From: Phycisphaeraceae bacterium
GTDB taxonomy: Bacteria > Planctomycetota > Phycisphaerae > Phycisphaerales > UBA1924
DNA length: 64,000 nt
Direction of reading: 5' to 3'
Assembly: GCA_019636795.1 (NCBI GenBank)
Contig: JAHBWW010000002.1
Coordinates: 558,001 to 622,000 of the forward strand
Each line of letters opens with the position of its first letter. Position 1 is the first letter of the stretch. The position numbers and the translations under genes were made by a program. Of the stretch, positions 3,296 to 20,266 are shown piece after piece. The notes below the pieces were generated by a model that saw only the letters and a list, made by a program, of their open reading frames with translations, was not told the DNA's origin and did not search any database.

Positions 3296-4143
3296 GGGCC
3301 AGCCTCCGCGCGGCGCGAGCGGGTGGCGTCGGGCCTCAGGCGCAGGGCGATGCGCGACAAGCCGCGGGCGCTGCTGAGGCGAGGCTCTTCGAGACGCCAG
3401 CCTGCGGGGGCCGAGATCGCTTCAAGCAGAGTCGCTGGATCGGCCGAGGTCGAGACCGCGATCTGGATATCGGCCTCGGCGACATTGATCGATTCGACAA
3501 AGGCATCGGTCGCATCGGGCCAGGCTGAGAGCACCAGCGCCAGCGCGATCGTTGCATCGGCGGGCAGCGAAAGGGCCGAGGCGAGCTGCAGGCGATCCTG
3601 ACGCTGGGCGAGTTCACGCTCGAGAGCCTCCGCATCGACGTTGGCGGCCTGGAGCATCTGCTCGATGGCTGTCTGGCCACGGTTGGCGCTGGCGTGATGC
3701 GACTGCGCACGCCGCTCAAGCCCGAGCGCCATCATCGCTGCGCACAGCAGCAGCGTTGCGGCGTACACGGTGTGTCGGACGGTGCGCTGCCGAGTCAGGC
3801 TGCGCGGTGCAAACCGACCGACCAGAAAGTTCAGACGCGATGGATCGAGGTCGCTGTCGAGCCACTCGGGCAGCGTTGCAGGTTGCAGCGAGATGACGTC
3901 TCGTCCCGATGGGTCGGACCAGACGTGTTGGATGTCTGACGCAGAGACCGCGCAGACGATGGTCTGGCCACGCCCGTCGCGCGCTGCCACCATAGACAGC
4001 GTGTCGGCATCGCTCGGGATGTCGGCTGCGGCCTCGTGAAGCAGGCCCGCAGCCGCCGGGCCATCCTTGCACCGCACCGGCCACTCCACGACCGACCAGA
4101 AGCAGCGCTGCGGCGACCAGGTCACGATGCGCTCGCTGCTCAT
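3292..4143 (-). CDS. GspL/PilN-like secretion platform protein
   Basis: This 283-aa protein has an N-terminal cytoplasmic part (residues ~1-125) that looks like a shortened actin-like GspL domain. A transmembrane segment (residues ~127-145, VYAATLLLCAAMMALGLE), a coiled coil (IEQMLQAANVDAEALERELAQRQDRL) and a ferredoxin-like C-terminal part of ~100 residues follow. GspL links the GspE ATPase to GspM and the pseudopilus. The gene overlaps the GspC-like gene upstream and the GspM-like gene downstream by four bases each, so the three should be translated together. It is shorter than proteobacterial GspL (~400 aa). The assignment relies on topology and context. Confidence 0.62.
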   Translation of the reverse strand: MSSERIVTWSPQRCFWSVVEWPVRCKDGPAAAGLLHEAAADIPSDADTLSMVAARDGRGQTIVCAVSASDIQHVWSDPSGRDVISLQPATLPEWLDSDLDPSRLNFLVGRFAPRSLTRQRTVRHTVYAATLLLCAAMMALGLERRAQSHHASANRGQTAIEQMLQAANVDAEALERELAQRQDRLQLASALSLPADATIALALVLSAWPDATDAFVESINVAEADIQIAVSTSADPATLLEAISAPAGWRLEEPRLSSARGLSRIALRLRPDATRSRRAEAGP

Positions 4144-4610
4144 GACCCGCCTCCGGCAAGCAACAAGGCCACCGTGCGCTCCCCATCGCGCACCACGATG
4201 CCCAAGCGGTCGATCGACTCGATGATCCGCCCGCGCGCAATCTCCTGCCCCACACCGACCGAGACCAGCACATCGCGATCCGGGTCATAGAGCACAGCGC
4301 GCGGCGATCCGGCCTCATCGACGATCGCGATGAGTTGCAGTTTTAGTGGCGGGGGCGGCGGCAGCGGTTTGGGCGCTGCGACCTCGACCGGCGGCGGAGC
4401 GACATACCAGATCGGGACGCCAAAGGCCGACAGGTCCAGTGGCTCGAGTTGAAGACCGTGCGCTAGGCCAGCCACCTCATCGGTCCTGATCACGACCTCG
4501 CCCGATGGCAACGGCCAGAGCGACCAGACCAGAGCGGTCAGCACCGCGCCCGCGCACACCGCAGCGTGCCTCACCCAGCGCGGCGAGCGCAGCGTCCCGT
4601 GCTCCCTCAT
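4140..4610 (-). CDS. GspC-like secretion coupling protein
   Basis: This 156-aa protein has a transmembrane segment (residues ~14-32), a Pro-rich linker (PKPLPPPPPLKLQL) and a beta-rich C-terminal domain (LQLIAIVDEAGSPRAVLYDPDRD…VGVGQEI…IIESIDRLGIVVRDGERTVALLL). The C-terminal domain has the pattern of the GspC homology region, which contacts the secretin. No PDZ domain follows, so it is a short form. Its position between gspE and gspL-like genes fits a type II secretion system; PilP (type IV pili) has a similar fold and is an alternative. Starts and stops overlap at both ends. Confidence 0.68.
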   Translation of the reverse strand: MREHGTLRSPRWVRHAAVCAGAVLTALVWSLWPLPSGEVVIRTDEVAGLAHGLQLEPLDLSAFGVPIWYVAPPPVEVAAPKPLPPPPPLKLQLIAIVDEAGSPRAVLYDPDRDVLVSVGVGQEIARGRIIESIDRLGIVVRDGERTVALLLAGGGS

Positions 4611-6208
4611 GTCTCAAGCTCCTCGCTCGCGTCGATGACGCGCGAGAGCTCGGCCTGCGTCGACACGCCTGAAGCCACCAGCGACAGCCCGTGCTCATGC
4701 AACGTGCGCATCCCGCGCGAGCGGGCCAGCGCCAGGATCTCGTTGGCCGGGGCGCGGTTGCTGATCATCGAGCGCAGCGCGGTATCCAGCACCAGCAGCT
4801 CAAAGAGCCCCGTCCGGCCCTCAAAGCCCGTCATCAGGCACGCCTCGCACCCGCGCCCGTCGCAGGCACCGTGCACCGTCCGCACCAGCCGCTGCGCCAA
4901 GACCGCACAGAGCGATGATGACACCAGAAACGGCTCGACGCCCAGATCAAGCAGACGCGCGATCGCACTGGCTGAATCGCTCGTGTGCAAGGTCGAGAGC
5001 ACCAGATGCCCCGTCAGACTCGCCTGCACCGCAATGCGGGCCGTCTCCTCGTCGCGGATCTCGCCGACCATGATCACATCAGGATCCTGCCGCAAAATGT
5101 GCCGCAGCCCCGTGGCAAACGTGACATTCTTCTTCGGATCGACCTGCGTCTGGCTGATCGCAAGCCCGGCTCCCGAGAGGTCATACTCGACCGGGTCTTC
5201 GACCGTGACCATGTTGAGTTCGCAGCCGCGCATCGAGCCGCCCGCGTTGGTGGCGCTGATCCACGCCAGGCTCGCGTACAGCGTCGTCGTCTTGCCGCTG
5301 CCCGTGGGCCCCGTCGAGAGCACGATGCCGCTGGTGCGCGCGATCTGCGCCAGGTACGCACGCTCAAGATCATCAGTCATGCCCAGACTTGCAAAGCTCG
5401 ACAGGTGCGGCGAGCGCGCGGGATCAAGCAGGCGCAGGACCACCCGCTCGCCATACACGCTCGGCAGCGTGCTGATGCGCAGGTCCGCCTGCCGACCAGC
5501 AGCCGACGCGTGCCGCCCGCCGGCGCGACCGATCGAGACCGAGGCCCGGCCATCCTGGGGCGCACGCCGCTCGGCCACATCCAGACCCGCCATCACCTTG
5601 ATCCGGCTGACCACACTCGCCGCCACCGACGACGGAAGCTCACGCATCGTGTGCAGCGAGCCATTGAGCCGGTAGCGCACCAGCGTGCGGTCGCGCAGCG
5701 GCTGAAGATGCACATCGCTCGCGCCGCGCACCAGCGCTTCAAACAGCACCAGGTCGACCAGCCGCACCGCCGGAGCCTTGCCGTGCGTACTCAAGAGATC
5801 GCGCTCGGCATCGCGCACGGCCAGATCCAGATCCCCCGCGACATCCTCGCCGCCCTCAATGACGATCGCTTCCTCAGCCTCGCGCTCTTCGCTGCGCTCA
5901 GCCGCATACGCCCGGTCAATGGCGATCGCCAGATCTTCGGCCGGACAGGTGCGGACATCGACCGCGCAGCCCAGACGCACCCCGATATTGAAGATCGCCG
6001 CGGGCCGCGTCTGGGCCGAGGCCAGAAGCAGCTCGACGCCTTCACGGCACCCGGCGCTGAGCACCAGGTGCCGACGCGCAAACTCGTGGTCGATCAGGCG
6101 CATAAACGTCTCGCTCGGCCGCGCCGTGCCCGCTGTCCATGCCGCCGTGGCCGTCATGGCCGGCGCAGAACCCGGTCCCGCATCCACATCAGTCGCTGGC
6201 GCGCTCAC
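4607..6208 (-). CDS. gspE: type II secretion ATPase GspE
   Basis: This 533-aa protein is the hexameric motor ATPase that drives pseudopilus assembly at the inner membrane. Visible are the N2 domain with arginine-rich motifs (~145-265), Walker A GPTGSGKTT (300-308), the Asp box, Walker B DPDVIMVGEIRDEE (375-388) and the His box GHLVLSTLHTSD (400-411). In the C-terminal zinc-motif region three Cys remain (449, 454 and 457) in CDGRGCEACLMTGFEGRTG, instead of the usual four. The first ~120 residues are Ala-rich and poorly conserved. It overlaps gspD upstream and the GspC-like gene downstream by four bases. PilB or PulE names are equivalent at family level. Confidence 0.93.
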   Translation of the reverse strand: MSAPATDVDAGPGSAPAMTATAAWTAGTARPSETFMRLIDHEFARRHLVLSAGCREGVELLLASAQTRPAAIFNIGVRLGCAVDVRTCPAEDLAIAIDRAYAAERSEEREAEEAIVIEGGEDVAGDLDLAVRDAERDLLSTHGKAPAVRLVDLVLFEALVRGASDVHLQPLRDRTLVRYRLNGSLHTMRELPSSVAASVVSRIKVMAGLDVAERRAPQDGRASVSIGRAGGRHASAAGRQADLRISTLPSVYGERVVLRLLDPARSPHLSSFASLGMTDDLERAYLAQIARTSGIVLSTGPTGSGKTTTLYASLAWISATNAGGSMRGCELNMVTVEDPVEYDLSGAGLAISQTQVDPKKNVTFATGLRHILRQDPDVIMVGEIRDEETARIAVQASLTGHLVLSTLHTSDSASAIARLLDLGVEPFLVSSSLCAVLAQRLVRTVHGACDGRGCEACLMTGFEGRTGLFELLVLDTALRSMISNRAPANEILALARSRGMRTLHEHGLSLVASGVSTQAELSRVIDASEELET

Positions 6209-8580
6209 CGGATCACCCTCGGCTCGACCACCGGCCAGCCCGTCTCAAGGTCGACCGCTTCAGCCTGTCGATCCGACAGATGCTTGAGACTCTCAAGATC
6301 ATGCTCTCGCATCACACTCGCCCGAATGAACACATAGAACTTCGAGTGGCTGCTCGCGCGGCTCCGGCTCTTAAACGCCTCGCCCACCACCGGGATCCGG
6401 CCCAGCAGCGGCACCTGCGTCACACTCTGCGACTCGTCCTCGATCTCGATCCCGCCCACCACCACCGTGTAGCCATCGGGAATCGTCGCCACGCTGCTCA
6501 CGCGGTTCTGCTGCCGCGCCGGAGGCAGCGTCGGCGAAGATGCCGGACCCAGAAACGCGCTGAGCGACACCGAATACTCCAAAAGCAGATGATCGCCCTC
6601 GGCGATCTGCGGCACAATCGTCACCGTCGTCCCCGCATCCTGCGTGCCGCCAAACGACGTCGTCGACACTGTGTTCGAGGCGTTCACGCTCGCAAACGGC
6701 TGCTGCACTACCGAATCGAGCCGCGCCACCTGGTTGTTGCCCACCAGCAGCGTCGGCATGCTCAGCGATCGCCCGTCCGAGATGCTCTCGATCGCGCGCA
6801 GCACAATCGAAAAGTCACCCGGATTGAGCACCACGCCAGTCAGGCCCGTGGCCGACACCGGGCCATCGAGCTGCCCACCCGTGCGCGTGCCAAGGCCAAA
6901 CAGCGACGACAGCCGGATGCTCGTCTGGCCCGACATCGCCAGTTGCTCGAGTTCCACGCCAAGGTCGCGCGACTGGCTCTCGGTCAACGTCACCAGCAGC
7001 ACATCGAGCATCACCTGCGATTGGCGGACATCCAAGGTCCGCAGCAATGACTCAATCTGGGCCAGCAATCGCGGCTCACCGGCCGCGATGAGCGTGTTGG
7101 TATGTTCGTCGGCTGACAACATCACCGCGCTGCCCGCACCTTGCTGCATCGCCCGCCCGCTCGAACCTGGCGCTGCTCTTGTCGGCGATACGCCTTCCTC
7201 GCTGCCCAGCGGCGGAGGCGCAAGCGTCACGCCATCATCGCGCACTTCCCGCACGCCCGCTGACGTGCGCTCCGACTCGGTCGCGGCCGCTTCCAAAATG
7301 CCGCTGGCCAGCAGATGTTCGAGAATCGAACGCATCTCCAGCACCGAGCGGTTGCGAATCACAAAGGTCCGCACCGGCCGGCGCGCCGCCGACGGCGCTG
7401 CATCCAGCCGGGTAATTAACGTCGCGATCTGCTCATGAGAAGCTGGTGTCGTCGTGATCACAAGACTGCCCGTGATCTCATCAATGATCATGCGCCAGCG
7501 ATCGTCCGTCGGCTGCCGCACCGTCTGCTCGATCAGCGATGCAATATCACGCGGCGCAAAGTGCAGCGGCGTATAGCCCACCGTCTCGAGCCGCTCACGC
7601 GAATCAAGTTCAGAAACAAGTTCACGCAGCGAAGGAAGATGCTCCTCCGTCCCGATCAGCAGCACCGCGCGCGGATCGGCCGCGGCAATCACCTCGCCGC
7701 CCGTCTTGCGCCCCGTGGCAAGTTCACGCTTGGCCGCGACCTGCATGATCAGAGCCGTCATCTGCACGCCCGAGAGATTTGATAATGCAACTTCCTCAAC
7801 CCGCGCCGACGCCGCCGGAAGATCCAGCCGCACCGCCATCTCAAGCACCTGTGCCAGCCGAGGCGAAAGATCGCTCACCACCACCATGCTCTCGCCCGCC
7901 GCCTGCACACTGCCGCCAGGCTTAGAAACCAGACGCGTCAACGTCTCGACCACCTCGCGCGCTGGCCGGTGCCTCAGCCCAAAGCCGATCGACCGAAACC
8001 CAGGCTCGGGGCTCGATGCCGAATGCGGCGGGCTTTGGACGCCAGCCGCAGCACCGGGCCGATCGAGCAGCACTCCGGCTCCTTCGTTGTCTTTCGCGTG
8101 GCGTTCCTTCGCGTCGCCGCCGCCTTCAAGCCCCTCGCCCACAGGCAAAAACGCGGCCGCAGCGTGTGCCGACGCCATCGCCGCACGTACATCATCAAAT
8201 GTCTCAAGCGGCGCAAAGCCCGCCGCATCCGCAAGCCGCACCACACTGTACGACCGATCACCCGACAGCCGCACCGTTGTCAATCCACGCGACACCAGCA
8301 CGCGGTTGGTCACGTACCACAACTCCAGATCACTCACCGCCGACTCAAACCGCATCGTCGCCGACCCGCGCACCACCGACGCGTCATATTCAACATTCAC
8401 ACCAAGACGCCCCGCAGCCAGATCCACCAGCCGCGCAAGCTCAACCTGGCCCGCCGGAAGTGTCTGGTTCGGCTGGGTTTGCGCAGCTTGCCCGATCGAA
8501 GGAGCCACGGAGCACCCAAGGAGCAATGCTGCCCCGAGTGCAGAAGCGGTCCATGGCCTGAGGAGTCTGCGGCAGGGCAT
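6205..8580 (-). CDS. gspD: type II secretion secretin GspD
   Basis: This 791-aa protein forms the outer-membrane ring through which folded proteins leave the cell. It has an N-terminal signal with a possible lipobox (ALLLGC, residue ~23), an STN/N0-like domain (~45-110) and N1-N3 ring-building domains with repeats such as YTPLHFAPRDIASLIEQTV and TFVIRNRSVLEMRSILEHLL. The secretin domain (~525-770) contains VVVGGIEIEDESQSVTQVPL and LGRIPVVGEAFKSR. A long low-complexity stretch lies near residues 140-200. It is the first gene of the secretion operon and starts only 40 bases after the last Rhs fragment. Its promoter must therefore lie in or before the Rhs array. Confidence 0.93.
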   Translation of the reverse strand: MPCRRLLRPWTASALGAALLLGCSVAPSIGQAAQTQPNQTLPAGQVELARLVDLAAGRLGVNVEYDASVVRGSATMRFESAVSDLELWYVTNRVLVSRGLTTVRLSGDRSYSVVRLADAAGFAPLETFDDVRAAMASAHAAAAFLPVGEGLEGGGDAKERHAKDNEGAGVLLDRPGAAAGVQSPPHSASSPEPGFRSIGFGLRHRPAREVVETLTRLVSKPGGSVQAAGESMVVVSDLSPRLAQVLEMAVRLDLPAASARVEEVALSNLSGVQMTALIMQVAAKRELATGRKTGGEVIAAADPRAVLLIGTEEHLPSLRELVSELDSRERLETVGYTPLHFAPRDIASLIEQTVRQPTDDRWRMIIDEITGSLVITTTPASHEQIATLITRLDAAPSAARRPVRTFVIRNRSVLEMRSILEHLLASGILEAAATESERTSAGVREVRDDGVTLAPPPLGSEEGVSPTRAAPGSSGRAMQQGAGSAVMLSADEHTNTLIAAGEPRLLAQIESLLRTLDVRQSQVMLDVLLVTLTESQSRDLGVELEQLAMSGQTSIRLSSLFGLGTRTGGQLDGPVSATGLTGVVLNPGDFSIVLRAIESISDGRSLSMPTLLVGNNQVARLDSVVQQPFASVNASNTVSTTSFGGTQDAGTTVTIVPQIAEGDHLLLEYSVSLSAFLGPASSPTLPPARQQNRVSSVATIPDGYTVVVGGIEIEDESQSVTQVPLLGRIPVVGEAFKSRSRASSHSKFYVFIRASVMREHDLESLKHLSDRQAEAVDLETGWPVVEPRVIR

Positions 8581-8619: not shown

Positions 8620-9437
8620 CTATGCGAGGCCGACGATTGCGTCCGGCTCGCCGTAGGCCGCGTAGTCGACCTCGAGGCTGGCCCGCTCGCGCAGCCAGAC
8701 CGAATGGCTCGTGCTGCCCCAGTCGTCGCCGATGACGCGTCGGACGCTGAACATGCTGTCAGAGAGTGTAAGGGCCAGGTCGCCGTGCGACCACGCACCG
8801 TCCGGGGGCGTGTAGGTCGTGCCGGGCAGGCCGTGCTGCACGCGACGGGCGACCAGATCGTCGATATACCGCACGCCCCACACCTGCTGGATCACACGGT
8901 CCAGGCCCGCCGAGGTCCCGAAATCTTCATCGATGTGCTCCTCGACCACCTGCCACGCAGCCGAGTAATAATATATCCGCTCGTCATCGACCGCCGTCGC
9001 CTGCGTCGTCTCGGCGTCGTACCGCCGCAGCGTCCGCCAGTTCAGCCCGTTGTACTCGTACACCCACGCAACACCGACCCCGGCTGCCGCGTCACCGACA
9101 CAAGCCGGTTCCAGGCGTCGTGCACAAAGTCCACGTCATATTGAGTCGGCAAAGGCGTGCCCGGAATCGTCCGCGTCTCCTGCTTCAGGTTGCCCGACGG
9201 GTCGTAGGTCAGCGCCGAACTGAACGGCTCGAAGGCCTTGCTCGCCGTCAGCAACTCGTTGGCCAGATTGTGCGTCCGGTCCTGCACTTCGTCGGTGTCG
9301 CCGAAGTCGCCATCGCCCGTCAGGTCAAAGCCCGTCTCGAGCCAGTTGCCGGGCATGTCGAGTTCCCACGACCGCGAGCCGACGGCACTGGTCAGCCCGC
9401 CGACGGATGTTCGGCATTTTTGTTCCGCAAGGTTCAC
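8620..9437 (-). pseudogene. third Rhs core fragment, frameshifted and truncated
   Basis: This is a piece of Rhs core almost identical to the full-length gene at 12547-13095. It begins at 9437, overlapping the stop of the small gene at 9434-9670, and reads GLTSAVGSRSWELDMPGNWLETG onward. Near 9060 one base is missing relative to the full-length copy (TCGTACACCC against TCGTACGACCC). The frame therefore switches from the 9042-9437 reading to the 8620-9063 reading. After RYIDD the sequence departs from the long gene and carries a different Rhs-type stretch (LTLSDSMFSVRRVIGDD…VDYAAYGEPDAIVGLA) that stops before any core-end signature. It is a non-functional remnant, or a reservoir for recombination. 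Confidence 0.85.
8852..9402. repeat. direct repeat C' of the Rhs core (matches 12547-13095)
   Basis: About 550 bp match the Rhs core of the long gene at 12547-13095 with only scattered differences and one single-base deletion near 9060. The repeat ends abruptly on both sides: after the RYIDD codons on the left and at the GGGCTGACC codons on the right. Confidence 0.9.
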
Positions 9438-9670
9438 TGCTGGTCAACAATGAATCGCTCATAGCAGTATGGGCACAGCAAGCCAATCAAAGCGCGATAG
9501 TAGTCATCTCCAGCAGCAATCGTAATGTTGCATATAATGCAGTGTCCGTGAGTAGCAGTACTGACCCATTTAGAGTGCGACCATGAGTGCCGTTTTGCAT
9601 CTTGTACGCACATAGTCAAATAGTCGAGATCAATCCGTGCGCCATTGACTTCTATCCATTTGTCGTCCAC
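9434..9670 (-). CDS. small CxxC/CxxC protein, candidate immunity to the orphan Rhs tip
   Basis: This 78-aa protein has two Cys pairs, CIIC near residue 46 and CPYC near residue 68, separated by ~20 residues, in GHCIICNITI…LLCPYCYERF. The layout is that of a small zinc-binding domain. It has an acidic N-terminus and no signal peptide or membrane segment, so it should be cytoplasmic. It lies 12 bases downstream of the orphan Rhs tip gene, the usual place for the immunity gene of an Rhs toxin, and its stop is overlapped by the next Rhs fragment. Immunity function is inferred from position. I do not recognise a named immunity family with certainty. Confidence 0.7.
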   Translation of the reverse strand: MDDKWIEVNGARIDLDYLTMCVQDAKRHSWSHSKWVSTATHGHCIICNITIAAGDDYYRALIGLLCPYCYERFIVDQQ

Positions 9671-9682
9671 GGAATGCGCCTT

Positions 9683-10942
9683 TCAATCGTACAAGATGCA
9701 CTTTCTGTCTAAAGAGGGACCTCGCCTGCGAATGTCCACATGCGGCGGGCCATGCAGCGGATCTGTGTGAACATTGTATGATCTTTTTGTCACTGGATTA
9801 TAAAAAGTTTCAGCGCCCTCTCGAATACTGCGAGGCGGTCCACACTTCTTGATGAGAGCAGTCCGAGCTTGGCTAGGCGACAGTTGTCGAAAATAAACAT
9901 CCGGAGATATTAGACCACCACTTCGCGTCGAGCAATTTGATGCGGATTCCACGCGAAAAACTGCAGGTACTCGGCAAAACAAGGTGAACAACAGCACCTC
10001 ATCAAGCGTCGAACTGAGTCCAGGATTCTCTCTCCGAACTCCCCACATACTCACAATGTCTTCGGTAGAACGAATCGGCCTGCTATCAAGAACCGGGCCG
10101 AAAGCATCGTTCGAGAAACGACCGGAACATTCATTGTCATGCCATTGCGCTTCGAGTTGCGCCAGCACGAACTGAATCGACATGCGACGCCGCTCGATAC
10201 AGTCACGGTCGGTGTACGCCAGCGAACTCAACCCAGTTTTACATGACGCCACCTGGTTGGCCGCAGCCTCTTCCTGCGAGGCCACATCATCCGCGAGAGT
10301 CGCGATATAATCAGCAACTCGACTACATCGAGCATCGCTGCACAGCTCCGAAGCGCCGAGATCCTGGAGAATGGGCATCATCTTTGGAGTGCGACACGCC
10401 CCGCTGCCCGACCATTGAATCATTGTACAAGCCATATCAGGCCGACCACTTGCCAGACCCGACGGGTCAACAAACATGATCGGATCTGACGACCCATACT
10501 GATACAAGTTCCCCCCATCCACATACCCCGCCGGATCTCTCTCGATCCACCGCCCCAGCCTTGGGCTGTAGTGCCTGAATCGCACGCAGTAGATCTGCTC
10601 TTCGCAGTTGAACCTGTAGCCCGCGTAGCCGACCTCGTTGTCCGGCCCGTCTTCGTCGCGAGGCCCGCTGATCCAGCCCTTCGGCAGCGCCGCACGCGTG
10701 CCGAACGCCGCGACGCGCGTGATGTCCTCCGACACACCATACGGCAGGATCGAGCCGTCGCGATCAAGATCCATGTCCGCGTGGTAGCCCGAGTCGCCGA
10801 TCGACTTGCCCTCCCCGTTGATCACCGCCTGCGCGTCGAAATAATCGACCGCACCGTCGCCATTGACATCGCCTCCCCGCGGTGCTTGAAAACGGCAACT
10901 GCGTCTCAACAAGGCACAGAATGACAAGGCGTTCACTCGCAA
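9683..10942 (-). CDS. orphan Rhs tip with alternative C-terminal domain
   Basis: This 419-aa reading starts at a TTG at 10942, right after the stop of the preceding gene. Residues ~20-145 copy the end of the full-length Rhs core: a dockerin-like double EF-hand (DVNGDGAVDYFDAQ, DMDLDRDGSI), then GYAGYRFNCEEQIYC and RHYSPRLGRWIERDPAGYVDG. The next ~275 residues are unrelated to the full-length protein's tip. They hold several Cys and end in a compact module (FYNPVTKRSYNV…HGPPHVDIRRRG) that resembles the end of BECR-type toxin nucleases; that resemblance is weak. It has no signal peptide, so it may be silent until recombined onto the long gene. A candidate immunity gene follows. Confidence 0.78.
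   Translation of the reverse strand: MRVNALSFCALLRRSCRFQAPRGGDVNGDGAVDYFDAQAVINGEGKSIGDSGYHADMDLDRDGSILPYGVSEDITRVAAFGTRAALPKGWISGPRDEDGPDNEVGYAGYRFNCEEQIYCVRFRHYSPRLGRWIERDPAGYVDGGNLYQYGSSDPIMFVDPSGLASGRPDMACTMIQWSGSGACRTPKMMPILQDLGASELCSDARCSRVADYIATLADDVASQEEAAANQVASCKTGLSSLAYTDRDCIERRRMSIQFVLAQLEAQWHDNECSGRFSNDAFGPVLDSRPIRSTEDIVSMWGVRRENPGLSSTLDEVLLFTLFCRVPAVFRVESASNCSTRSGGLISPDVYFRQLSPSQARTALIKKCGPPRSIREGAETFYNPVTKRSYNVHTDPLHGPPHVDIRRRGPSLDRKCILYD
10510..10885. repeat. direct repeat B' of the Rhs core end (matches 12006-12384)
   Basis: About 375 bp match the long rhs gene at 12006-12384. The match covers the dockerin-like insert, the RHYSPRLGRWIERDP core-end signature and the first bases after it. 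Similarity stops at GCGGTGCT on the upstream side and just after the YVDG codons on the toxin side, so the repeat is bounded by the tip junction. Confidence 0.9.
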
Positions 10943-11422
10943 CTAGCCACCATCCGTATTCTGCGTTGAATCCGAAACAATTTTCCGGATCCAGTTTTCA
11001 ATCACTTGATCTTCAAACCCAATCTTTCCAACTCGTTGATTCCAATCCGCTGCTGAGGACTTTCGAGTGGACACTACTAATTGTGAATCAAGAATATTTA
11101 TGCGTACAGTTTCTGCTTCAATAACTACTCTTGGCACATACGAAATAAATGACACCTTGGAGTCCATGGCCAATTTCTTGGACAAGTACTCAGAAAGTAT
11201 CGCCTGTTTCGAATCGCCCGGAAAATACGTTTGTTTAAATGATGGTTCTCCGCCTGGAGTGCGGACGAAAACAGAGATGCTTTCATGCTGTAGTCCGCTT
11301 GGATCGACTGGGGTAGCGTCAAAAACTCGGATGGACCACAAATAGATAAGAATGACCGCAAATGCAGCCGCTATGCCGAAAAACACAAATCGCCTCTTCT
11401 TATTCAATATTTCGGCCCCCAC
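10943..11422 (-). CDS. membrane-anchored protein, candidate immunity to the full-length Rhs tip
   Basis: The protein has about 154-159 aa. Possible starts are the TTG at 11407, which overlaps the rhs stop (TTGA), or the GTG at 11422; no ATG fits. After a basic stretch (NKKRR) there is one strong transmembrane segment (FVFFGIAAAFAVILIYLWSI). A ~115-residue extracytoplasmic domain follows, rich in beta strands (ISVFVRTPGGEPSFKQTYFPG…VSFISYVPRVVIEAETVRINIL). Directly downstream of, and coupled to, the full-length rhs gene, it is placed as the immunity gene. A membrane-anchored outer domain would fit a toxin that acts in the periplasm or cell wall. Function is inferred from context; no family is recognised. 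Confidence 0.68.
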   Translation of the reverse strand: MGAEILNKKRRFVFFGIAAAFAVILIYLWSIRVFDATPVDPSGLQHESISVFVRTPGGEPSFKQTYFPGDSKQAILSEYLSKKLAMDSKVSFISYVPRVVIEAETVRINILDSQLVVSTRKSSAADWNQRVGKIGFEDQVIENWIRKIVSDSTQNTDGG

Positions 11423-14400
11423 AAAACATTTGGCTGAGGTGATGTGCGTCGCGGCGGTTCGGGGAAAAATTTGTCCTTCAGAATTTGGTAGGCATTTTCC
11501 GAAAATTTTCTGCAGGTGGTGTGGCAAATAGAGTAATTTGCTCTTTGGCCATCCAAAGACCGCAGATACTCTTCGGCTTCACGATCTTGGGCGCATGTAG
11601 TTTTGAGTCTGCGATTCTTTTTTTCCTTGGTGGCGTCATCAATCACGTCTTCATAAACTTCTCCATCACCGTCATCTCTGGGGCCATCGATTGGAAATTT
11701 AGTTCCAGGTGGCAATGGGTTTGTCGCCTTTCCATCCTCACCGCTGCTGGACGAATCGTCATCAGAACTATCAGGGTCGGTCGACGAGCCATCGCTGCAA
11801 TCCGAGTCAGGTATGGAACCGCTCGCATCAATCGCTCCGAAACTGATACAGTATTTTCCTGTCTTCTTTGAACAATCTTGGCTCCATGTATCGACACATA
11901 TACGCTGATGAAGACCACGTACCTGTTTTGTGTTCTCAATCCATACATCTAGCCCATATGGATCTTGATGCAGTGACGGGCGAGAAAGAGCATATTGGGA
12001 AAGGTTTGCCCCATCGACATACCCCGCCGGATCCCTCTCGATCCACCGTCCCAGCCTCGGGCTGTAGTGCCTGAAGCGCACGCAGTAGATCTGCTCCTCG
12101 CAGTTGAACCGATACCCCGCATAGCCGACCTCGTTGTCCGGCCCGTCTTCGTCGCGAGGCCCGCTGATCCACCCGCGTGGCAGGGCCGCGCGCGTGCCGA
12201 ACGCCGCGACGCGCGTGATGTCCTCCGACACGCCATACGGCAGGATCGAGCCGTCGCGATCAAGATCCATGTCCGGGTGGTAGCCGCCGTCGCCGATCGA
12301 CTGACCCGCCGCGTTGATCACGGCCTGCGCGTCGAAGTAATCGACCGCACCGTCGCCATTGACATCCCCGCCCCAGCGGTGCTCGCCGCGCCCGTACGGC
12401 GAATACGCCACGCGTTCATACAACACCCCGGCCTCGTCAAGCACAGCAACCACGCTGAACTGTACGTCCGTCGCCAGGAAAAAGATCCCGTCATCCGCAT
12501 CGGCAAAGTCGCCGTCGGCGTTGCGGTCCAGCCGCCGCAGCACGGCATCATCAATGTACCGCAATCCCCACACCTGCTGGATCACACGGTCCAGGCCCGC
12601 CGAGGTCCCGAAATCTTCATCGATGTGCTCCTCGACCACCTGCCACGCAGCCGAGTAATAATATATCCGCTCGTCATCGACCGCCGTCGCCTGCGTGCTC
12701 CCCGAGTCGTACCGCCGCAGCGTGCGCCAGTTCAGCCCGTTGTACTCGTACGACCCACGCAACACCGACCCCGGCTGCCGCGTCACCGACACAAGCCGGT
12801 TCCAGGCGTCGTGCACAAAGTCCACGTCATATTGAGTCGGCAAAGGCGTGCCCGGAATCGTCCGCGTCTCCTGCTTCAGGTTGCCCGACGGGTCGTAGGT
12901 CAGCGCCGAACTGAACGGCTCGAAAGCCTTGCTCGCTGTCAGCAACTCGTTGGCCAGATTGTGCGTCCGGTCCTGCACTTCGTCGGTGTCGCCGAAGTCG
13001 CCATCGCCCGTCAGGTCAAAGCCCGTCTCAAGCCAGTTGCCGAGCATGTCGAGTTCCCACGACCGCGAGCCAACCGCGCTCGTCAGCCCCGCCGTCGGGT
13101 CGCCGACCGTCACCGCCGCCCCACGATCGGCCTGCACCAGTCGATCGAGCTCGTCGTACGAATAGTTCCAGTCCCGATTCGGCAGGTGCGCCCCCGGGCG
13201 CGCATCGTGCTTCGCAATCCGATTCGACGAGGCGTCGTAGGCGTAGACCTCGGCCAGGATCGGCGGGATGTTCGGCACGGCCGAGTTGCTCGCGTGCTCG
13301 TCAAACCCGCCGTCCACCCACATCTGCCGCAGCACGCGGCCGTGACGGTCAAAGCCCGGGTAGACCCCGCTCTCACGCTCGCCGTTGAGGTGCACCGTGC
13401 GGTCAAGACCGAAATCCGGCACGGCATAGTCCACCACGGCAAAGATGCCGAGGCCCACATAGTCGTACAGCACGATGTCCTCGACGGTGGTGTCATCGTC
13501 GATGTCTATGCGCAGTTTCGCGATGCGGCTGAGGCGGTCGTCGATGGTGCCCGAGCCGTAGCCGTAGAAGACCGTGGGCGCGCCGTTGCTCGCCGGATAT
13601 CCAAGCGATGCGAGACGACTGTAGTTGCCGTTCTCCCAGTCGGCTTGGTCGTAGTCGTACGTCACAGCCTGCGTATCGCCGGTGGGCGTGCCGGCCGATT
13701 CCGTCACCGCGCTGTTATGGTCCTGGAACACCTTCTCCACCTGCCAGAGTCCGTTGTAGGTGAACTTGACGCCATTGATCGCCGTGGCGCCCGATGTGTC
13801 CGAATAGGTCGTGACCTCTCCGAGCCTGCCGAGCGGGTCGTAGGAAACCCCGATGCGCCGCGCCCACCCGCTGATGCCGCTCCCGAGCGTATCGGCGATG
13901 TTCACTGTCACCCGCCCGATGGCGTCGCGCTCATAGACGTGAATCGTCCCGTTCTGATCCTTGACGCCGCTCAACTCGCCCAGCCGGTTGTAACCGTAGA
14001 ACACCTTGAAGGCATCCGTGGTCCCCGGCTCGCCGGTCGATTCATCGGGATAATGCACTTCCTTGAGCAGCGAACCGCTGGCAATCAGCGAATCAGTCGT
14101 TCCGGGGCTGGCCGCATTGGTTGTGCCATAGACATATCGAGTGACCTGCACATCCTCGATCGTGTCGTAGCCGTCCTGCACGGCGAGATGCGCAACCTGC
14201 TTCACAACGTTGCCGACCCCGTCGTAGATGTACGAGGTCACCCGGTTGGCATCCATTCTGGTGTAATCGAGCCCGTCGGACACCGTCCAGCGCCCGTTGC
14301 CCGAATCCCAGGTGATCTCAAGTTCCGGATCCGATTCTGGATCGAAGTTCTCGATGCTCGCAGCCGTGCGCCCAAGATCATCCCGAAGCAACCGTGTCAC

Positions 14401-17400
14401 CTTGCCAGCCGGATCCACGGCGTCAAGCATCATGCCCCGCGTGTCATACGTGACCGATTCGATCAGCCACTCCGGGTTCGTCGCGCGATCCGGCAGCGAG
14501 GTCAACGGCTCCGGTGCTTCCCCACCGATCTCGAACAGATCATTCGCGGTGTTCGTGCCGTACTGAACACTGCCGATTCTCCGCAGCGCATCGTCATACA
14601 CAAACCCGGTGTACATCGCAACAGCACTATTCTCGTCGAGAGCCCCCGTGCCACTGGTGTCATCGTGCCGGCGCAGGAAGCGGGACACTCCGGTGACCCG
14701 CCCGGCGGGCGAGTACTGATACTCGGTCTGCTCGATGATGTGGTCGCCTGCGGCATCCACAGCGTCCGCGTAATTTCCTGATGCGCTCGGCAACTCGTCA
14801 TCGGCCCGGTCCGTGACGTACACCGCCGTGGCCCTGCCGTGCGCGTCATACACCCGCTTGACCGCGGGCCCGTTGGCACCCCACTGGGCGATCACCCGAC
14901 CCTGATCGTCGAACCAGGTGTTTGATTCAAGGAAGTCTGGCGAACTGGCCGCCGGATCGATCGCTGTCCGCTCCTTGTAGACCAGCCCCCGCTGGCTGTA
15001 CATCCGCACCATGTACGAACCCCGGTCCGTGTTCGTCGTCGCGGGGTCGATTGCATCCAGCGTGTGTGAATGTCCAGACGCGTACGTCGCCTGGGCGGCG
15101 AGCCGATCCAGGTTGTCATACTTGAAGACCTGATCCGGAGTGTTTGCGCCGCTTGGCGACTCCACCGCGATCAAGCGATCACGATGGTCGAAGTATTGCT
15201 TCGTATCGCGCGAGGTTGATCCATCTTCGTGCTGCCGGACAAGCGTCAGGGTGCCGTTGCCAACACCCGAAGTCGTTGTCTGGGCGCTGTCGTAGAAGTT
15301 TTCCAGCACGGTCACCGGATCGTACTCGGACCCACTTTCATCACGCCCAACGCGCACCTGAACAACGCGATCCATCACGTCGTACTCATGCTCGGTGATC
15401 GTGCCGTTGGGATCAATCCTGCGCGCCAGGCGACCGAGACTGTCGTATGACAACGAAGTCGTGTTCCACGCTCCGCCGCTGACATCTTCCCACTCCTGAA
15501 TCTGTGTGACCAATCCGGCAAGCGAGTGATGCACAACGCGCCGCGAGACCTCGCCTTGCGGAGCATCGGTGAGGGCAGTTTGCCCGACTGGAGTTAACTC
15601 AAACTCGTACAGCCCTGCCAACGGGCTGTAATCTTCCGTGGGATCAAGCGTGTAGTCGCTGCTGCGGATCGTCTGGCCGCCTGCATTAACCCAGGTCACG
15701 CTCGCCAGACCGTCAAACGAGTCATCGAGGAGGCGGTGAGGAAGATCAATCGCGGCCAGATAGAGCGTACCGCTCCGCAACGAGTTGCCTCGCATCTCTC
15801 GCCTGGTGTACCGCGCGACTCCACCAGGAGCAATCGTCCGTGTCACCCGCCCGAGCAGGTCTCGATCATACAGAGTGACCAGTTCCTCGCTGGCATTCGA
15901 GGCCATTCCCCAGCCCTCTGTTGACAGCTCGGCGTGTGACGCCGGCAGGTCGTGCTCTCCGCCCTCTGATCCAAGTTCACCGGGATCTTCAGCCATGGCG
16001 TTGCGAACGACAGCCGACAATCTCCCGGATCCTCTCATGTAACGGCGGTGCGTCAGCGTCAGTTCTTCCGGTGCCGCACCCGGGTGCGCTGACCAGACGT
16101 TGTTGCCCCTGGCGTCAAAGATTTCATACCGCGCAACGGTGTTCTCTGTACCTGAAGGACCGTTTTCGGCCTCGATCTCCCGCTCCACCTCGGCCTTGAC
16201 ATAGGCCAGGGCATTCTGTTCCGTTTCGAAGAACCCGTATGAAAACGAAGTCACTTCAATGTCGTGATCAGCCGTTCCGCCCGCCACGCGGTACCTCTTG
16301 ATCGCCTTGATCAAATCGGTGCGGAAATACTGCGGTTCGTCTTCGTCATCCCATTCATAGTCCTCGGAGTCCACGTACTCGTGCTCTTCAATCAGGTCAT
16401 AGCCGCCGCCTGCCTTGCTGACCCACACCTGAGCGCGACGATTCTCCACGTTGTAGCCGAACTTGTAGGCCAAGCCGGCGGTTGGATCCGCCGTGAAATC
16501 GGGCGCTTCGTCATCTTCATCACAGGGCACATATGAAGTCACAGACGATGGAGTAAATTGAACCTCAAGATTGCCATACTCCCCGTTGTCTGCTTCCTCT
16601 CCCGGATCCCAGTCGACATGGTCCCACGCCTTCGCCCAGATGCGCGCCGTTTCACCTGACGAATCGGCGATCGCTCGCGACACCATGTAAGCGGGATACG
16701 GCTTGCCTTGCACGCTTGTGCCGCTGCGAAGCCGCTCGAAGTCATAGTACCACGTGCGATACGCCAGATAATCCCCGGTGCCATCGTCGACGCTTTCAGT
16801 GATGCGGGCCGTCATGCCCGGGCGGCTCGACCCGCCGGCCCAGTCATAAGAGAAGTAGTCGTACTCCAGCTGCACACCCTGCGCCGCACCGCCGCCGCAT
16901 CCGCACGAACTCTGCACCCACTGGCGAGCTACGCGCTGCGAGGCGTCGTCGTAATCGACGATCTTGGCGCACAAATCGATCAGCTCGATTCCCGTTCCTT
17001 CCAGGTCCGCTGCATCATCCGCGACGGTGCGGAGAAGGTCAGCCGCTTCCTGCATGGTCTTGATATCAGACTCTTCAATCCCCCAGGCGTTTGCGAAGAA
17101 CTCGATCTGCTCCGGCTGAATAATCATCTCGAGCTGCATCGACTGGCCGCGGGCGTTGAGACGATCGTCCAACTCAGTTCCGGCGGTTTCGGTCTCGTGA
17201 TAACGGTACTGAGTGATCCTCGTTCTCCACGAGTCCTCTTCAGAGGGGTCGCCGTCAAGCAGCGTGCGATGCACCACCTCGATGAGCAGTCCGATGTCCG
17301 ACGCACCCACGTCACCGTGAGACGCAACCCCCTGCTGGCCTGCATATCGGTACTGGCAGGTTTGCGTGAGAACCCGATGCCCCTGGGCGTTGAACCGATA

Positions 17401-19365
17401 GACTTCGATAGCGCCAAGCCGGCCGCGAATCGCGGGGTTCGTCTCGGACACGATCCAGTCGAATTCAACCACAGCCTCCGGAGCATCCGGCCCCAGAATA
17501 ACACCCGGTGTGCCGTTCAAATAAATCGTGCTCAGGCGAATCGTCGAGGCCAAGTCCCCAAACTGGCGATACTTGTAGATGCGGCGATTTCCGTACGAGT
17601 CACTCCACTGCGCAATACTCCCTCCTACCTTGTTGAAATCGAGGAAGCCTCCTCCCGGCTCCGAGAGCCTGTAGACATCTACGACATCGTCTCCGACCTC
17701 GATGTCTTCGAGTTCAAGAATGCCCCACTGAACGCGTCGTCCTCCCGGACCCCATCCAACAATCGTCTGCATGGGGTCATACAGAGGCTCGAAGGACCTG
17801 AACTTGTGCATCGGGGGGCCTGTCAGGTGAAGATAATCATGGACGTCGCGCCACAGCCTGCGAAAACTCGAGATCTGCCAGTTGGCCCCGACCAATCCCG
17901 GCACCGGACCCGACGAGGCATGCAGATCCGGATCGCTTGAATAGCCGCGCACAATGCGATAGTCAGGCCCGGTCACCGGCACAACGACGTCAACAACCTG
18001 CTCGACCTTGTGTCCGGTGACGAGATACACCGCAGCGGTTGTGGTACCGCCCCCCTGCGGGTCATCAGGCGAAGGCTCGCCAGCGTCCGCCGGAGAATCG
18101 GGGTCTGCACCACCATCACCGCAATCAACTTCAGCCTCATCGATCCCCGCGCCTCCACTTCCACCGGAACCGTCTGAAGACTCACCATCCTCTTCGTCGG
18201 CAAGATTCTCGGGAAACTCATGGAAAGCGGGTTCAATGACTGCTCTGAGCGGGGTCGCCGGTTTGTAACCGACTTCGGCGTCACCATATAAATAACCATC
18301 ATCTTCAAATTCGACGATCGCGCACGGAATTTCAGCAAAGAGGTCGAGAGGGCCCGACACATCATTGAGCATCGGGCCGTCACACTCGCCTGAAGTCGAG
18401 GCATCGATGACGACGTAAAATCCGTCGGGAAACGGTAACGGAGCAGGAGGGGCCGGAACAGGGAGGTTCGGATCGTGGTTGTCGCTTTCAATCATGGCGA
18501 CATAGAGCTCAACGACATCATCTTCACCGAGGTGATCCAAATTTACTATGCGCACACGAGCTCGTGTGGCTTCCATGCTCATAGATACAAAATGGCGTGG
18601 CTCAAATGGATCAATTAATCCAGGATCATAAGAGTAACTATAGTTGGCAGAGGCACTGAGTGCTCCGCTAAGGCATGACGGGTTGGTGCCCGGGCAAGTC
18701 CATTCACTATTGTTCCACTCACTCTCAATATACGCAGATTCCAACCCCCTTGCCCCTCCACACGATTCGCCGGCCTGTCCTCCCTCAACGCCACTAACTC
18801 CTCGCGAGGAATTATCACTATCTGACAAGCAGAGTTGATACTGGCCGGTAACAAATCTTAGTTGTTGCACATTTTCATACAGCTCATCCATGACTTCAAG
18901 GTAATTTTCATCATCGGCCGGGCCGACCGCCAGATCCCCGTCCAAGTAATTGCTACCTACATTCCTCGCAGTGCCATTAATAATAACTTGATCTTCAAAA
19001 TGTCTTCCAAATGGGTGCAGAGTTGGTATGATGAAGTGCATGTAGAGGGAAGAACTGCCAGATAGAGGATCACTTTCAAAAGCCGCAATCACATCATTCA
19101 CCAACTCTGCCTTTTGTTCGTCGCTCAGCGCTCCTTCCGCTGAATACCACCCGTCTGGCGGATAAGCAGGAGCTGTCGCGTTGCCGATCGGTCGATTCGG
19201 CCAGTCGATCGAGTTGGGCTCGTCGTAGTAATTCGCAATCCATTCAAACCGAGCCTGGATCTGTCGCATCGTCTCTTCAATAGGAAAGGACTGAGCGAAC
19301 ACCGAGCCGCCGCAGGGCAGAATGAAAAGCAGTATGGCCAAGGAGATCAGTCGGATACGATTCAT
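11404..19365 (-). CDS. giant secreted Rhs/YD-repeat polymorphic toxin
   Basis: This 2653-aa protein has a Sec signal peptide (MNRIRLISLAILLFILPCGG…FAQ) and a unique N-terminal domain of ~390 residues. An acidic Gly/Ser/Asp linker (~395-450) follows, then a long Rhs shell starting at VVDVVVPVTGPDYRIVRGYSSDP with many YD-repeat units. Just before the core end sits a dockerin-like pair of calcium loops (DVNGDGAVDYFD, DMDLDRDGSI). The core ends with RHYSPRLGRWIERDPAGYVDG. The ~200-aa tip contains GLHQRICVDTW…ISFGAID and NYSICHTTCRKFSENAYQIL, like a permuted papain-type Cys hydrolase, split by an Asp/Ser-rich insert. It probably acts in contact-dependent competition. A coupled membrane protein follows. 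Confidence 0.92.
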   Translation of the reverse strand: MNRIRLISLAILLFILPCGGSVFAQSFPIEETMRQIQARFEWIANYYDEPNSIDWPNRPIGNATAPAYPPDGWYSAEGALSDEQKAELVNDVIAAFESDPLSGSSSLYMHFIIPTLHPFGRHFEDQVIINGTARNVGSNYLDGDLAVGPADDENYLEVMDELYENVQQLRFVTGQYQLCLSDSDNSSRGVSGVEGGQAGESCGGARGLESAYIESEWNNSEWTCPGTNPSCLSGALSASANYSYSYDPGLIDPFEPRHFVSMSMEATRARVRIVNLDHLGEDDVVELYVAMIESDNHDPNLPVPAPPAPLPFPDGFYVVIDASTSGECDGPMLNDVSGPLDLFAEIPCAIVEFEDDGYLYGDAEVGYKPATPLRAVIEPAFHEFPENLADEEDGESSDGSGGSGGAGIDEAEVDCGDGGADPDSPADAGEPSPDDPQGGGTTTAAVYLVTGHKVEQVVDVVVPVTGPDYRIVRGYSSDPDLHASSGPVPGLVGANWQISSFRRLWRDVHDYLHLTGPPMHKFRSFEPLYDPMQTIVGWGPGGRRVQWGILELEDIEVGDDVVDVYRLSEPGGGFLDFNKVGGSIAQWSDSYGNRRIYKYRQFGDLASTIRLSTIYLNGTPGVILGPDAPEAVVEFDWIVSETNPAIRGRLGAIEVYRFNAQGHRVLTQTCQYRYAGQQGVASHGDVGASDIGLLIEVVHRTLLDGDPSEEDSWRTRITQYRYHETETAGTELDDRLNARGQSMQLEMIIQPEQIEFFANAWGIEESDIKTMQEAADLLRTVADDAADLEGTGIELIDLCAKIVDYDDASQRVARQWVQSSCGCGGGAAQGVQLEYDYFSYDWAGGSSRPGMTARITESVDDGTGDYLAYRTWYYDFERLRSGTSVQGKPYPAYMVSRAIADSSGETARIWAKAWDHVDWDPGEEADNGEYGNLEVQFTPSSVTSYVPCDEDDEAPDFTADPTAGLAYKFGYNVENRRAQVWVSKAGGGYDLIEEHEYVDSEDYEWDDEDEPQYFRTDLIKAIKRYRVAGGTADHDIEVTSFSYGFFETEQNALAYVKAEVEREIEAENGPSGTENTVARYEIFDARGNNVWSAHPGAAPEELTLTHRRYMRGSGRLSAVVRNAMAEDPGELGSEGGEHDLPASHAELSTEGWGMASNASEELVTLYDRDLLGRVTRTIAPGGVARYTRREMRGNSLRSGTLYLAAIDLPHRLLDDSFDGLASVTWVNAGGQTIRSSDYTLDPTEDYSPLAGLYEFELTPVGQTALTDAPQGEVSRRVVHHSLAGLVTQIQEWEDVSGGAWNTTSLSYDSLGRLARRIDPNGTITEHEYDVMDRVVQVRVGRDESGSEYDPVTVLENFYDSAQTTTSGVGNGTLTLVRQHEDGSTSRDTKQYFDHRDRLIAVESPSGANTPDQVFKYDNLDRLAAQATYASGHSHTLDAIDPATTNTDRGSYMVRMYSQRGLVYKERTAIDPAASSPDFLESNTWFDDQGRVIAQWGANGPAVKRVYDAHGRATAVYVTDRADDELPSASGNYADAVDAAGDHIIEQTEYQYSPAGRVTGVSRFLRRHDDTSGTGALDENSAVAMYTGFVYDDALRRIGSVQYGTNTANDLFEIGGEAPEPLTSLPDRATNPEWLIESVTYDTRGMMLDAVDPAGKVTRLLRDDLGRTAASIENFDPESDPELEITWDSGNGRWTVSDGLDYTRMDANRVTSYIYDGVGNVVKQVAHLAVQDGYDTIEDVQVTRYVYGTTNAASPGTTDSLIASGSLLKEVHYPDESTGEPGTTDAFKVFYGYNRLGELSGVKDQNGTIHVYERDAIGRVTVNIADTLGSGISGWARRIGVSYDPLGRLGEVTTYSDTSGATAINGVKFTYNGLWQVEKVFQDHNSAVTESAGTPTGDTQAVTYDYDQADWENGNYSRLASLGYPASNGAPTVFYGYGSGTIDDRLSRIAKLRIDIDDDTTVEDIVLYDYVGLGIFAVVDYAVPDFGLDRTVHLNGERESGVYPGFDRHGRVLRQMWVDGGFDEHASNSAVPNIPPILAEVYAYDASSNRIAKHDARPGAHLPNRDWNYSYDELDRLVQADRGAAVTVGDPTAGLTSAVGSRSWELDMLGNWLETGFDLTGDGDFGDTDEVQDRTHNLANELLTASKAFEPFSSALTYDPSGNLKQETRTIPGTPLPTQYDVDFVHDAWNRLVSVTRQPGSVLRGSYEYNGLNWRTLRRYDSGSTQATAVDDERIYYYSAAWQVVEEHIDEDFGTSAGLDRVIQQVWGLRYIDDAVLRRLDRNADGDFADADDGIFFLATDVQFSVVAVLDEAGVLYERVAYSPYGRGEHRWGGDVNGDGAVDYFDAQAVINAAGQSIGDGGYHPDMDLDRDGSILPYGVSEDITRVAAFGTRAALPRGWISGPRDEDGPDNEVGYAGYRFNCEEQIYCVRFRHYSPRLGRWIERDPAGYVDGANLSQYALSRPSLHQDPYGLDVWIENTKQVRGLHQRICVDTWSQDCSKKTGKYCISFGAIDASGSIPDSDCSDGSSTDPDSSDDDSSSSGEDGKATNPLPPGTKFPIDGPRDDGDGEVYEDVIDDATKEKKNRRLKTTCAQDREAEEYLRSLDGQRANYSICHTTCRKFSENAYQILKDKFFPEPPRRTSPQPNVLWGPKY
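12006..12384. repeat. direct repeat B in the full-length rhs gene
   Basis: This is the partner of the repeat at 10510-10885. It encodes the dockerin-like insert and the Rhs core-end signature immediately before the toxic tip. Confidence 0.9.
12547..13095. repeat. direct repeat C in the full-length rhs gene
   Basis: This is the partner of the repeat at 8852-9402. It encodes the last YD-repeat units upstream of the dockerin-like insert. Repeats B and C do not overlap: each orphan fragment copied a different part of the core. Confidence 0.9.
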
Positions 19366-19561: not shown

Positions 19562-20266
19562 ATGCACTATACTGTTGAAGTTATGACAATTGGTCTATTG
19601 CTCGCTGGCACAGCATCCCTGACCATGAATCATCAGCCGGACCCGCCACAGTCGTCTTCCTCCACTCAAACCCTGGTGTTCATCGAGGCGGGCATGTTGC
19701 CCGATGTCCTGGCTGCGGAAGGCATCAGTTCTGCCGAAACGCTCGCGATGCTTGCCGCGTTCGAGGATTGTGACACACTTTGCTCGGGCTTGATCGCGCT
19801 GCATGGAAGCCTTTCCGAGAGCGTTCAGCAGATTGCCTTGATGACGAATCGCTTAGCATCCAATCCACTCGATGACGATGCGCAAGTCGCGCTTGCGGCG
19901 GCGGAGGCCTCACGCACTGGATTGTCACAGCAACTGGTTCAAGCTCGATCGCAGCTGCGCAGATTCATCTGGTCAGAGGCTGGGCGGCCCGGACCCAATG
20001 CAGCATCAGCGTCGTTCCTCGCGGGCCAATCCCAATTGCCGATCGCACTGAGTGCGTATGAAGGCGAAAGCGACTTCCTCTCAACCCTCAAACAAGCCTT
20101 GGTTGCTGAACGCAGGGCCACACGACGGGGAGAAACCTTGGAAAGCAAGCATCAGACCGCGCTGCTTCGAGCACGCTCTGATCTCGCAGTCACCCAGGCT
20201 CAGGTGAATCTGAACGCAAATCTTCATGAAGTGTCCGCTGTTCTTGATTCATGGGGCCAAGAGTAA
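19562..20266 (+). CDS. hypothetical exported helical protein
   Basis: This 234-aa protein is unrecognised. An ATG at 19562 has GAGGG upstream. A hydrophobic segment (MTIGLLLAGTASLTM, residues ~8-22) looks like a signal peptide, with the ATG at residue 8 as an alternative start. The rest is predicted mostly helical, with Leu/Ala-rich heptad-like stretches (LIALHGSLSESVQQIALMTN, SQQLVQARSQLRRFIW, RSDLAVTQAQVNL) that could form a helical hairpin, and one near Cys pair (DCDTLC). It is divergent from the giant rhs gene with a 196-base gap. No function can be stated; coding status is supported by length, start site and signal peptide. Confidence 0.62.
   Translation: MHYTVEVMTIGLLLAGTASLTMNHQPDPPQSSSSTQTLVFIEAGMLPDVLAAEGISSAETLAMLAAFEDCDTLCSGLIALHGSLSESVQQIALMTNRLASNPLDDDAQVALAAAEASRTGLSQQLVQARSQLRRFIWSEAGRPGPNAASASFLAGQSQLPIALSAYEGESDFLSTLKQALVAERRATRRGETLESKHQTALLRARSDLAVTQAQVNLNANLHEVSAVLDSWGQE

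What the first reader, a model, noticed from the sequence alone, without database searches (positions are those of the whole stretch)
8620..19365. Rhs toxin array: one full-length gene followed by two orphan core fragments with different tips
Downstream of a 2653-aa secreted Rhs gene lie two more Rhs pieces. One (9683-10942) repeats ~375 bp of the core end and then carries a different C-terminal domain. The other (8620-9437) repeats ~550 bp of an earlier core part. Each of the first two tips is followed by a small gene in the immunity position. This is the arrangement of tip reservoirs known for Rhs loci in Enterobacteria (established for those), but here the protein is planctomycete-like with a Sec signal peptide. 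Homologous recombination through the repeats could swap tips: the 12006-12384/10510-10885 pair would replace tip 1 with tip 2 and delete the first immunity gene.
Basis: partly seen in the sequence, partly recalled or inferred. Interest (0 to 1): 0.78.

Follow-up and report, generated by a model that had tools for sequence, protein, structure and literature searches.

The report
Rhs toxin-tip array beside secretion operon
A planctomycete carries a giant secreted toxin gene followed by a spare toxin tip with its own antidote gene, a known kind of swap reservoir, but here the toxin gene belongs with a type II secretion operon that lies beside its relatives across this bacterial class and may be its private exporter.

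Summary
The array is real. Rhs A (11404-19365, 2653 aa, Sec signal) is followed by a small membrane gene, then an orphan core end with an unrelated tip (9683-10942; 92% nucleotide identity to A over 375 bp, stopping 59 bp before the DPxGL junction) and its own small gene. That small gene pairs with the same tip domain in two distant Planctomycetota, so it is very probably the cognate immunity gene. The second "fragment" (8620-9437) is not a tip: it is a frameshifted core remnant that stops inside the core. Orphan tip modules are common in relatives, and some tips are orphan in one genome and on a full-length gene in another, so a reservoir role is well supported. No recombinant was observed. 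The larger finding lies outside the given coordinates: genes 2190-8508 form a T2SS-like operon. Operons with this secretin type lie beside Rhs genes across Phycisphaerae: head to head in 41 of 57 loci, same strand in 3 more, against Rhs on the far side in 2 of 51. In the window the Rhs block is inverted relative to that arrangement. I propose dedicated T2SS export of polymorphic Rhs toxins. The linkage is shown; export is inferred.

The parts
11404..19365 (-). Rhs A, full-length polymorphic toxin, 2653 aa, N-terminal Sec-type signal peptide (MNRIRLISLAILLFILPCGGSVFAQS)
   Evidence: RHS_repeat 3.2e-24 and Rhs_assc_core 5.2e-13; homologs in 43 of 61 relatives
11407..11946 (-). tip A (180 aa), activity unassigned; weak PPPDE-peptidase resemblance (E 0.031, below cut-off)
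   Evidence: G+C 47.5% against 59.9% for the core
10943..11407 (-). putative immunity gene A; small protein with one N-terminal membrane segment; TTG start overlaps the TGA stop of Rhs A
   Evidence: sequence; G+C 43.7%; no homolog found
9683..10942 (-). orphan module 2: core end (to about 10453) plus tip 2; no signal peptide, first ATG at codon 57
10513..10886 (-). core-end repeat, orphan copy, 92% identical to 12009-12383, same codon register, start-to-start distance 1496 bp
12009..12383 (-). core-end repeat, Rhs A copy
9686..9964 (-). tip 2 C-terminal toxin domain, 56-62% identical to domains in two other Planctomycetota
   Evidence: AlphaFold2 pLDDT 79.6, no significant PDB match
9434..9670 (-). 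immunity gene 2 (78 aa, CxxC...CxxC); homologs (42% and 37%) directly follow the tip-2 homologs in L160 and L161
8620..9437 (-). frag 1: frameshifted core remnant without a tip; 8857-9406 is 96% identical to 12547-13098
12547..13098 (-). Rhs A copy of the second repeat pair
19562..20266 (+). p230-family gene (234 aa), divergent from Rhs A; conserved beside Rhs in relatives and beside Rhs B
6205..8508 (-). GspD-type secretin of the Rhs-linked subfamily
   Evidence: Secretin 1.9e-28, GspD 2.6e-57; copies beside Rhs B and Rhs C
4607..6157 (-). GspE ATPase
   Evidence: T2SSE 5.3e-110, GspE 8e-144
4140..4610 (-). GspC-like inner-membrane/periplasmic protein (assigned by position and sequence look)
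   Evidence: no family hit; position matches L113 operon
3292..4143 (-). GspL-like protein (the positional counterpart in L113 hits T2SSL weakly, E 0.0027)
2771..3295 (-). GspM-like protein
   Evidence: T2SSM E 0.004, below cut-off
2190..2774 (-). TPR lipoprotein, pilotin-like (PilW/Tgl-like)

Best explanation
This is a polymorphic Rhs toxin locus. Rhs A is exported through Sec and then, most likely, through the T2SS-like machine whose genes belong with it (GspD, GspE, C-, L- and M-like proteins and a TPR lipoprotein, perhaps sharing GspF and pseudopilins encoded elsewhere). Outside the cell it delivers its C-terminal tip to competing bacteria; the small gene after the tip protects the producer. 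The orphan module 9434-10942 is a silent spare: it has no signal peptide or proper start, and it is read only if homologous recombination between the two in-register 375-bp core-end repeats (1496 bp apart) joins its tip and immunity gene to the Rhs A body. By simple deletion this would remove tip A and immunity A; by unequal exchange after duplication both could be kept. Frag 1 is a decayed core remnant. Shown: the repeats, the register, the junction, the conserved tip-2/immunity-2 pair, the recurrence of such arrays, tips shared between orphans and full-length genes, and the linkage of this secretin type with Rhs. Inferred: export route, toxicity, immunity function, and the swap.
For: Repeats and register. 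Within arrays, pieces share 78-96% DNA identity over 220-900 bp that as a rule ends within about 90 bp upstream of DPxGL while tips are unrelated. Third-codon excess of differences (36 of 53, p 5e-7). Tip 2 and immunity 2 travel as a pair. Orphan tips match main tips in other genomes: L137 with L116 (54% over 292 aa), L084 with L125 (52%), L080 with L066 (38%). Secretin-Rhs linkage: 44 of 57 upstream against 2 of 51 downstream, p 6e-16; 18 of 45 Rhs-type secretins near Rhs against 0 of 33 other secretins, p 1e-5. Three copies in this genome all lie beside Rhs. L113 has a complete T2SS gene set with p230 next to Rhs.
Against: No recombinant seen; relatives are different species, so there is no strain-level swap. 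Tip A has no homolog in 392 genomes and its activity is unknown. The window operon lacks GspF and pseudopilins. 13 of 57 secretin loci show no Rhs. Linkage is not proof of export. Counts were made with loci of uneven length and partly with hand-listed coordinates.
Confidence: 0.72

Rival explanations
1. The orphan module is a relic: an old full-length Rhs gene was displaced by a new tip and its remains are decaying, kept at most for the immunity gene.
For: Frag 1 is clearly decaying (frameshift, truncation). The orphan lacks a start and signal peptide. A string of past immunity genes is an expected by-product of tip replacement (PMC3482391).
Against: The 419-aa frame of module 2 is open, its differences from A sit mainly at third codon positions (21 of 31), its tip/immunity pair is intact and conserved elsewhere, and multi-tip arrays recur in many genomes.
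Confidence: 0.3
2. The orphan tips serve as an immunity collection against neighbours rather than as a reservoir of weapons.
For: Each real tip module keeps a small gene; orphan immunity expression is known in CDI systems (PMC3150448).
Against: The toxin halves are kept open too, and tips occur as orphan in one genome and as main tip in another.
Confidence: 0.25
3. The T2SS operon is near the Rhs genes only because both sit in a repeat-rich, recombining region; Rhs A leaves the cell by another route (lysis, surface anchoring).
For: The B and C operon copies are 99-100% identical over 6.3 kb although their Rhs genes are unrelated at DNA level, so operons move or convert between loci. No experiment exists.
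Against: The head-to-head order recurs across families and genera of Phycisphaerae and is absent at other secretins; p230 is conserved between the two.
Confidence: 0.2

Closest known systems
Orphan rhs-CT/rhsI modules of Enterobacteria (Salmonella LT2 rhs-main/rhs-orphan, Dickeya; PMC3967940, PMC3150448)
   Same: Full-length rhs, immunity gene, then orphan core end + tip + immunity; repeat of similar length and identity (522 bp at 95% in Salmonella, 375 bp at 92% here); junction at DPxGL; orphan lacks start and export signal.
   Different: Sec signal peptide instead of T6SS export; no T6SS genes here; dockerin-like segment inside the core end; T2SS-like operon beside it; recombination demonstrated there, not here.
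Polymorphic toxins assigned to 'T2SS/Sec' export (Zhang et al. 2012, PMC3482391)
   Same: Signal-peptide RHS toxins of planctomycetes with standalone tip cassettes in toxin-immunity order.
   Different: Table 1 there lists no signature neighbourhood genes for this route; here a specific T2SS operon is linked.
Bcn-A, an Rhs-related bacteriocin of Xanthomonas perforans (PMC7259588)
   Same: Rhs-related antibacterial protein whose activity was lost in an xpsD (T2SS secretin) mutant.
   Different: Depends on the general Xps T2SS; no dedicated operon next to it.
CdiA/cdiI orphan arrays (PMC3150448) and Neisseria MafB cassettes (PMC3482391)
   Same: Constant secreted body with downstream silent tip/immunity cassettes.
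   Different: Other protein families and export routes.

Membership tests
Rhs polymorphic toxin | YD/RHS repeats and Rhs-associated core domain before a variable C-terminus | tested here: met
   PF05593 3.2e-24, TIGR03696 5.2e-13
Rhs polymorphic toxin | toxin tip followed by cognate immunity gene | tested here: inconclusive
   gene order met for both tips; pair conservation shown for tip 2 only; activity not testable
orphan rhs-CT reservoir | downstream fragment sharing the core end, different tip, own immunity gene, no start/export signal | tested here: met
   module 9434-10942
orphan rhs-CT reservoir | same features in frag 1 (8620-9437) | tested here: not met
   no core end, no tip, frameshift
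orphan rhs-CT reservoir | recombination with the main gene occurs | not testable with these tools
   no reads or strains; indirect support from shared tips
T6SS-exported Rhs | T6SS genes (VgrG, PAAR, Eag) at the locus, no Sec signal | tested here: not met
   Sec-type signal; the ORFs scanned around the locus gave no such Pfam hit; the whole genome was not searched for T6SS
Type II secretion system | GspD secretin and GspE ATPase | tested here: met
   (Pfam over cut-off; NCBIfam GspD/GspE best hit but below equivalog cut-off)
Type II secretion system | GspF and pseudopilins in the operon | tested here: not met
   absent from the window operon; six GspF-type loci elsewhere in the genome; GspF, GspG, further prepilin-type genes and a weak GspK hit are present in L113
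Type II secretion system | exports the linked Rhs protein | not testable with these tools
   needs deletion and secretome work

The most novel reading that the evidence does not exclude
Phycisphaerae have a dedicated, horizontally duplicated T2SS branch (own secretin, ATPase, C/L/M proteins, pilotin-like lipoprotein and the p230 protein) that exports giant Rhs toxins whose tips are renewed from orphan cassettes beside and far from the main gene: a T2SS-based competitor to the T6SS route of Proteobacteria.
Probability: 0.5. Interest if true: 0.78.

Novelty: new variant of a known kind. Interest (0 to 1): 0.6.

Why it matters
How giant Sec-signal Rhs proteins cross the outer membrane of diderm bacteria is unclear. 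A secretin operon conserved beside such genes across a bacterial class turns that into a testable hypothesis, names the genes to delete, and extends the tip-reservoir idea from Enterobacteria to planctomycetes with sequence-level evidence that tips move between main and orphan positions.

Tried and rejected
Frag 1 as a tip module: rejected. Gene conversion from mismatch clustering: weak for frag 1 (longest identical run 172, p 0.006), none for module 2 (p 0.29). Inverted repeats at the inversion ends: none found. Tip A structure from a single sequence: pLDDT 44, useless. Tip 2 domain: good model (79.6) but no significant PDB match; a BECR-type RNase fold is only a guess from its helix/strand order. 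PDB sequence searches: nothing. Integron-like or RNA identity of the dispersed palindromic repeats: no Rfam hit, not pursued. First genome-contig scan with the Rhs protein gave no relative; the secretin alignment worked. A YD-motif regex alone undercounted Rhs (29 of 57) and was replaced by tblastn.

Full report
Observation. All pieces lie on the minus strand. Rhs A is 19365->11404 (2653 aa) with RHS repeats, a Rhs-associated core and a dockerin-like segment near the core end. Its first residues are a typical Sec signal peptide. Its TGA stop overlaps a TTG start of a small gene ending at 10943. Module 2 (10942->9683) repeats the core end (10513-10886 against 12009-12383, 92%) and then carries another tip, followed by a 78-aa gene (9670->9434). 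Both copies of the repeat have the same codon register. Identity to Rhs A runs from -433 to -59 bp relative to the end of the DPxGL motif and is absent in the tips. G+C falls from 60-62% in the cores to 44-53% in tips and small genes, the classical Rhs pattern.

Frag 1. The piece 8620-9437 aligns to 12547-13098 (96%), but a 1-bp deletion near 9062 breaks the frame and the sequence ends in core-type sequence also found at C2:84030 and C2:87991. It has no tip and no immunity gene. Recombination through it would give a tipless Rhs.

Immunity. Tip 2's last ~90 residues are 56-62% identical to domains in two Planctomycetota of another family (L160, L161). In both, the next gene is a homolog of the 78-aa protein (42% and 37%). 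A pair kept together over that distance is good evidence for toxin and immunity. For tip A no homolog was found, so its partner is assigned by position only.

Own genome. The window is C2:558001-622000 of a 3.49-Mb, 8-contig genome. A second Rhs (B) at C4:438586-444846 is 91% identical over residues 1-2086 and runs into the contig end; C3 begins inside a core end with another tip, so the assembly probably breaks at this repeat. A third, different Rhs (C) lies at C2:~318 kb. Further orphan pieces lie at C4:214 kb, C2:171-176 kb, C4:361-367 kb, C1:16-19 kb and C2:88 kb, most of them ending in distinct tips.

Relatives. 43 of 61 genomes have homologs. Of 12 full-length genes with at least 3 kb of downstream sequence read, 8 have a core-derived piece downstream (my count). 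In arrays, pieces share 78-96% DNA identity up to the junction and then nothing. Among 90 tips few resemble each other, but some orphan tips match main tips of other genomes (L137/L116, L084/L125, L080/L066), and in L073 the full-length gene and its nearest orphan share a tip (67% over 184 aa). These are the footprints expected of tip exchange. A same-species swap was not available to test.

Secretion operon. Genes 8508->2190 encode GspD, GspE, C-, L- and M-like proteins and a TPR lipoprotein (C, L and M assigned partly by position and weak hits). The same operon lies beside Rhs B and Rhs C. From an alignment of seven such secretins a scan of genome contigs returned 77 loci, nearly all planctomycete MAGs and mostly Phycisphaerae. 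Of 57 with at least 4 kb upstream, 41 have an Rhs homolog head to head and 3 on the same strand; on the downstream side it is 2 of 51 (Fisher p 6e-16). In the 61-genome set, 18 of 45 Rhs-type secretins lie within 12 kb of a full-length Rhs, against 0 of 33 other secretins (p 1e-5). Between them usually sits the p230 gene. In L113 the operon also encodes GspF, GspG, further prepilin-type proteins and a weak GspK. This genome's copies lack those, and six GspF-type loci lie elsewhere, so sharing is possible but unproven.

Inversion. Beside Rhs B the order is GspD<- p234<- RhsB->. In the window it is GspD<- frag1<- module2<- RhsA<- p234->, so the Rhs block with p234 is inverted relative to the operon. 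No inverted repeats were found at the ends. Three relatives also have Rhs on the secretin's strand (L101, L108, L124).

Known background. Recombination between main and orphan rhs through a 522-bp, 95% repeat was shown in Salmonella, with the warning that simple deletion removes the first immunity gene (PMC3967940; PMC3150448). Zhang et al. list a T2SS/Sec route for signal-peptide toxins with no signature neighbourhood genes (PMC3482391). In Xanthomonas an Rhs-related bacteriocin lost activity in a T2SS secretin mutant (PMC7259588). My searches of open-access papers found no report of a T2SS operon linked to Rhs in planctomycetes; subscription papers were not searchable.

Verdict. One genuine spare tip plus one dead core remnant: a known kind of reservoir in a new lineage. 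The unreported part, as far as I could search, is the conserved T2SS linkage, which suggests a dedicated export route.

Noticed in passing
G000 C4:431059-437348 and C2:309450-315739 (L061/L024 and L062/L022): T2SS operon copies beside Rhs B and Rhs C are 99-100% identical over about 6.3 kb although the adjoining Rhs genes are unrelated at DNA level; recent conversion, transfer or an assembly effect.
   Followed up: partly
L021 1727, 4184, 5241, 14035; L028 7670, 7841; L030 8411: Dispersed palindromic repeats of about 100-150 bp lie between genes at several loci, including Rhs arrays; no Rfam family matched.
   Followed up: partly
window 12250-12370 and 10760-10880: A dockerin-like calcium-binding motif sits inside the Rhs core end.
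   Followed up: no
L101, L108, L124: Relatives in which the Rhs gene lies on the same strand as the secretin, like the window, instead of head to head.
   Followed up: partly
window 30655-31007: tmRNA gene on the minus strand.
   Followed up: no
L073 (G012 C6): Six tip-bearing pieces in 19 kb; the full-length gene and the nearest orphan carry related tips, as after a recent duplication or swap.
   Followed up: partly
L030 6880-6999 (C2:454879): A short remnant of Rhs core lies near another GspD/GspE pair of this genome.
   Followed up: no
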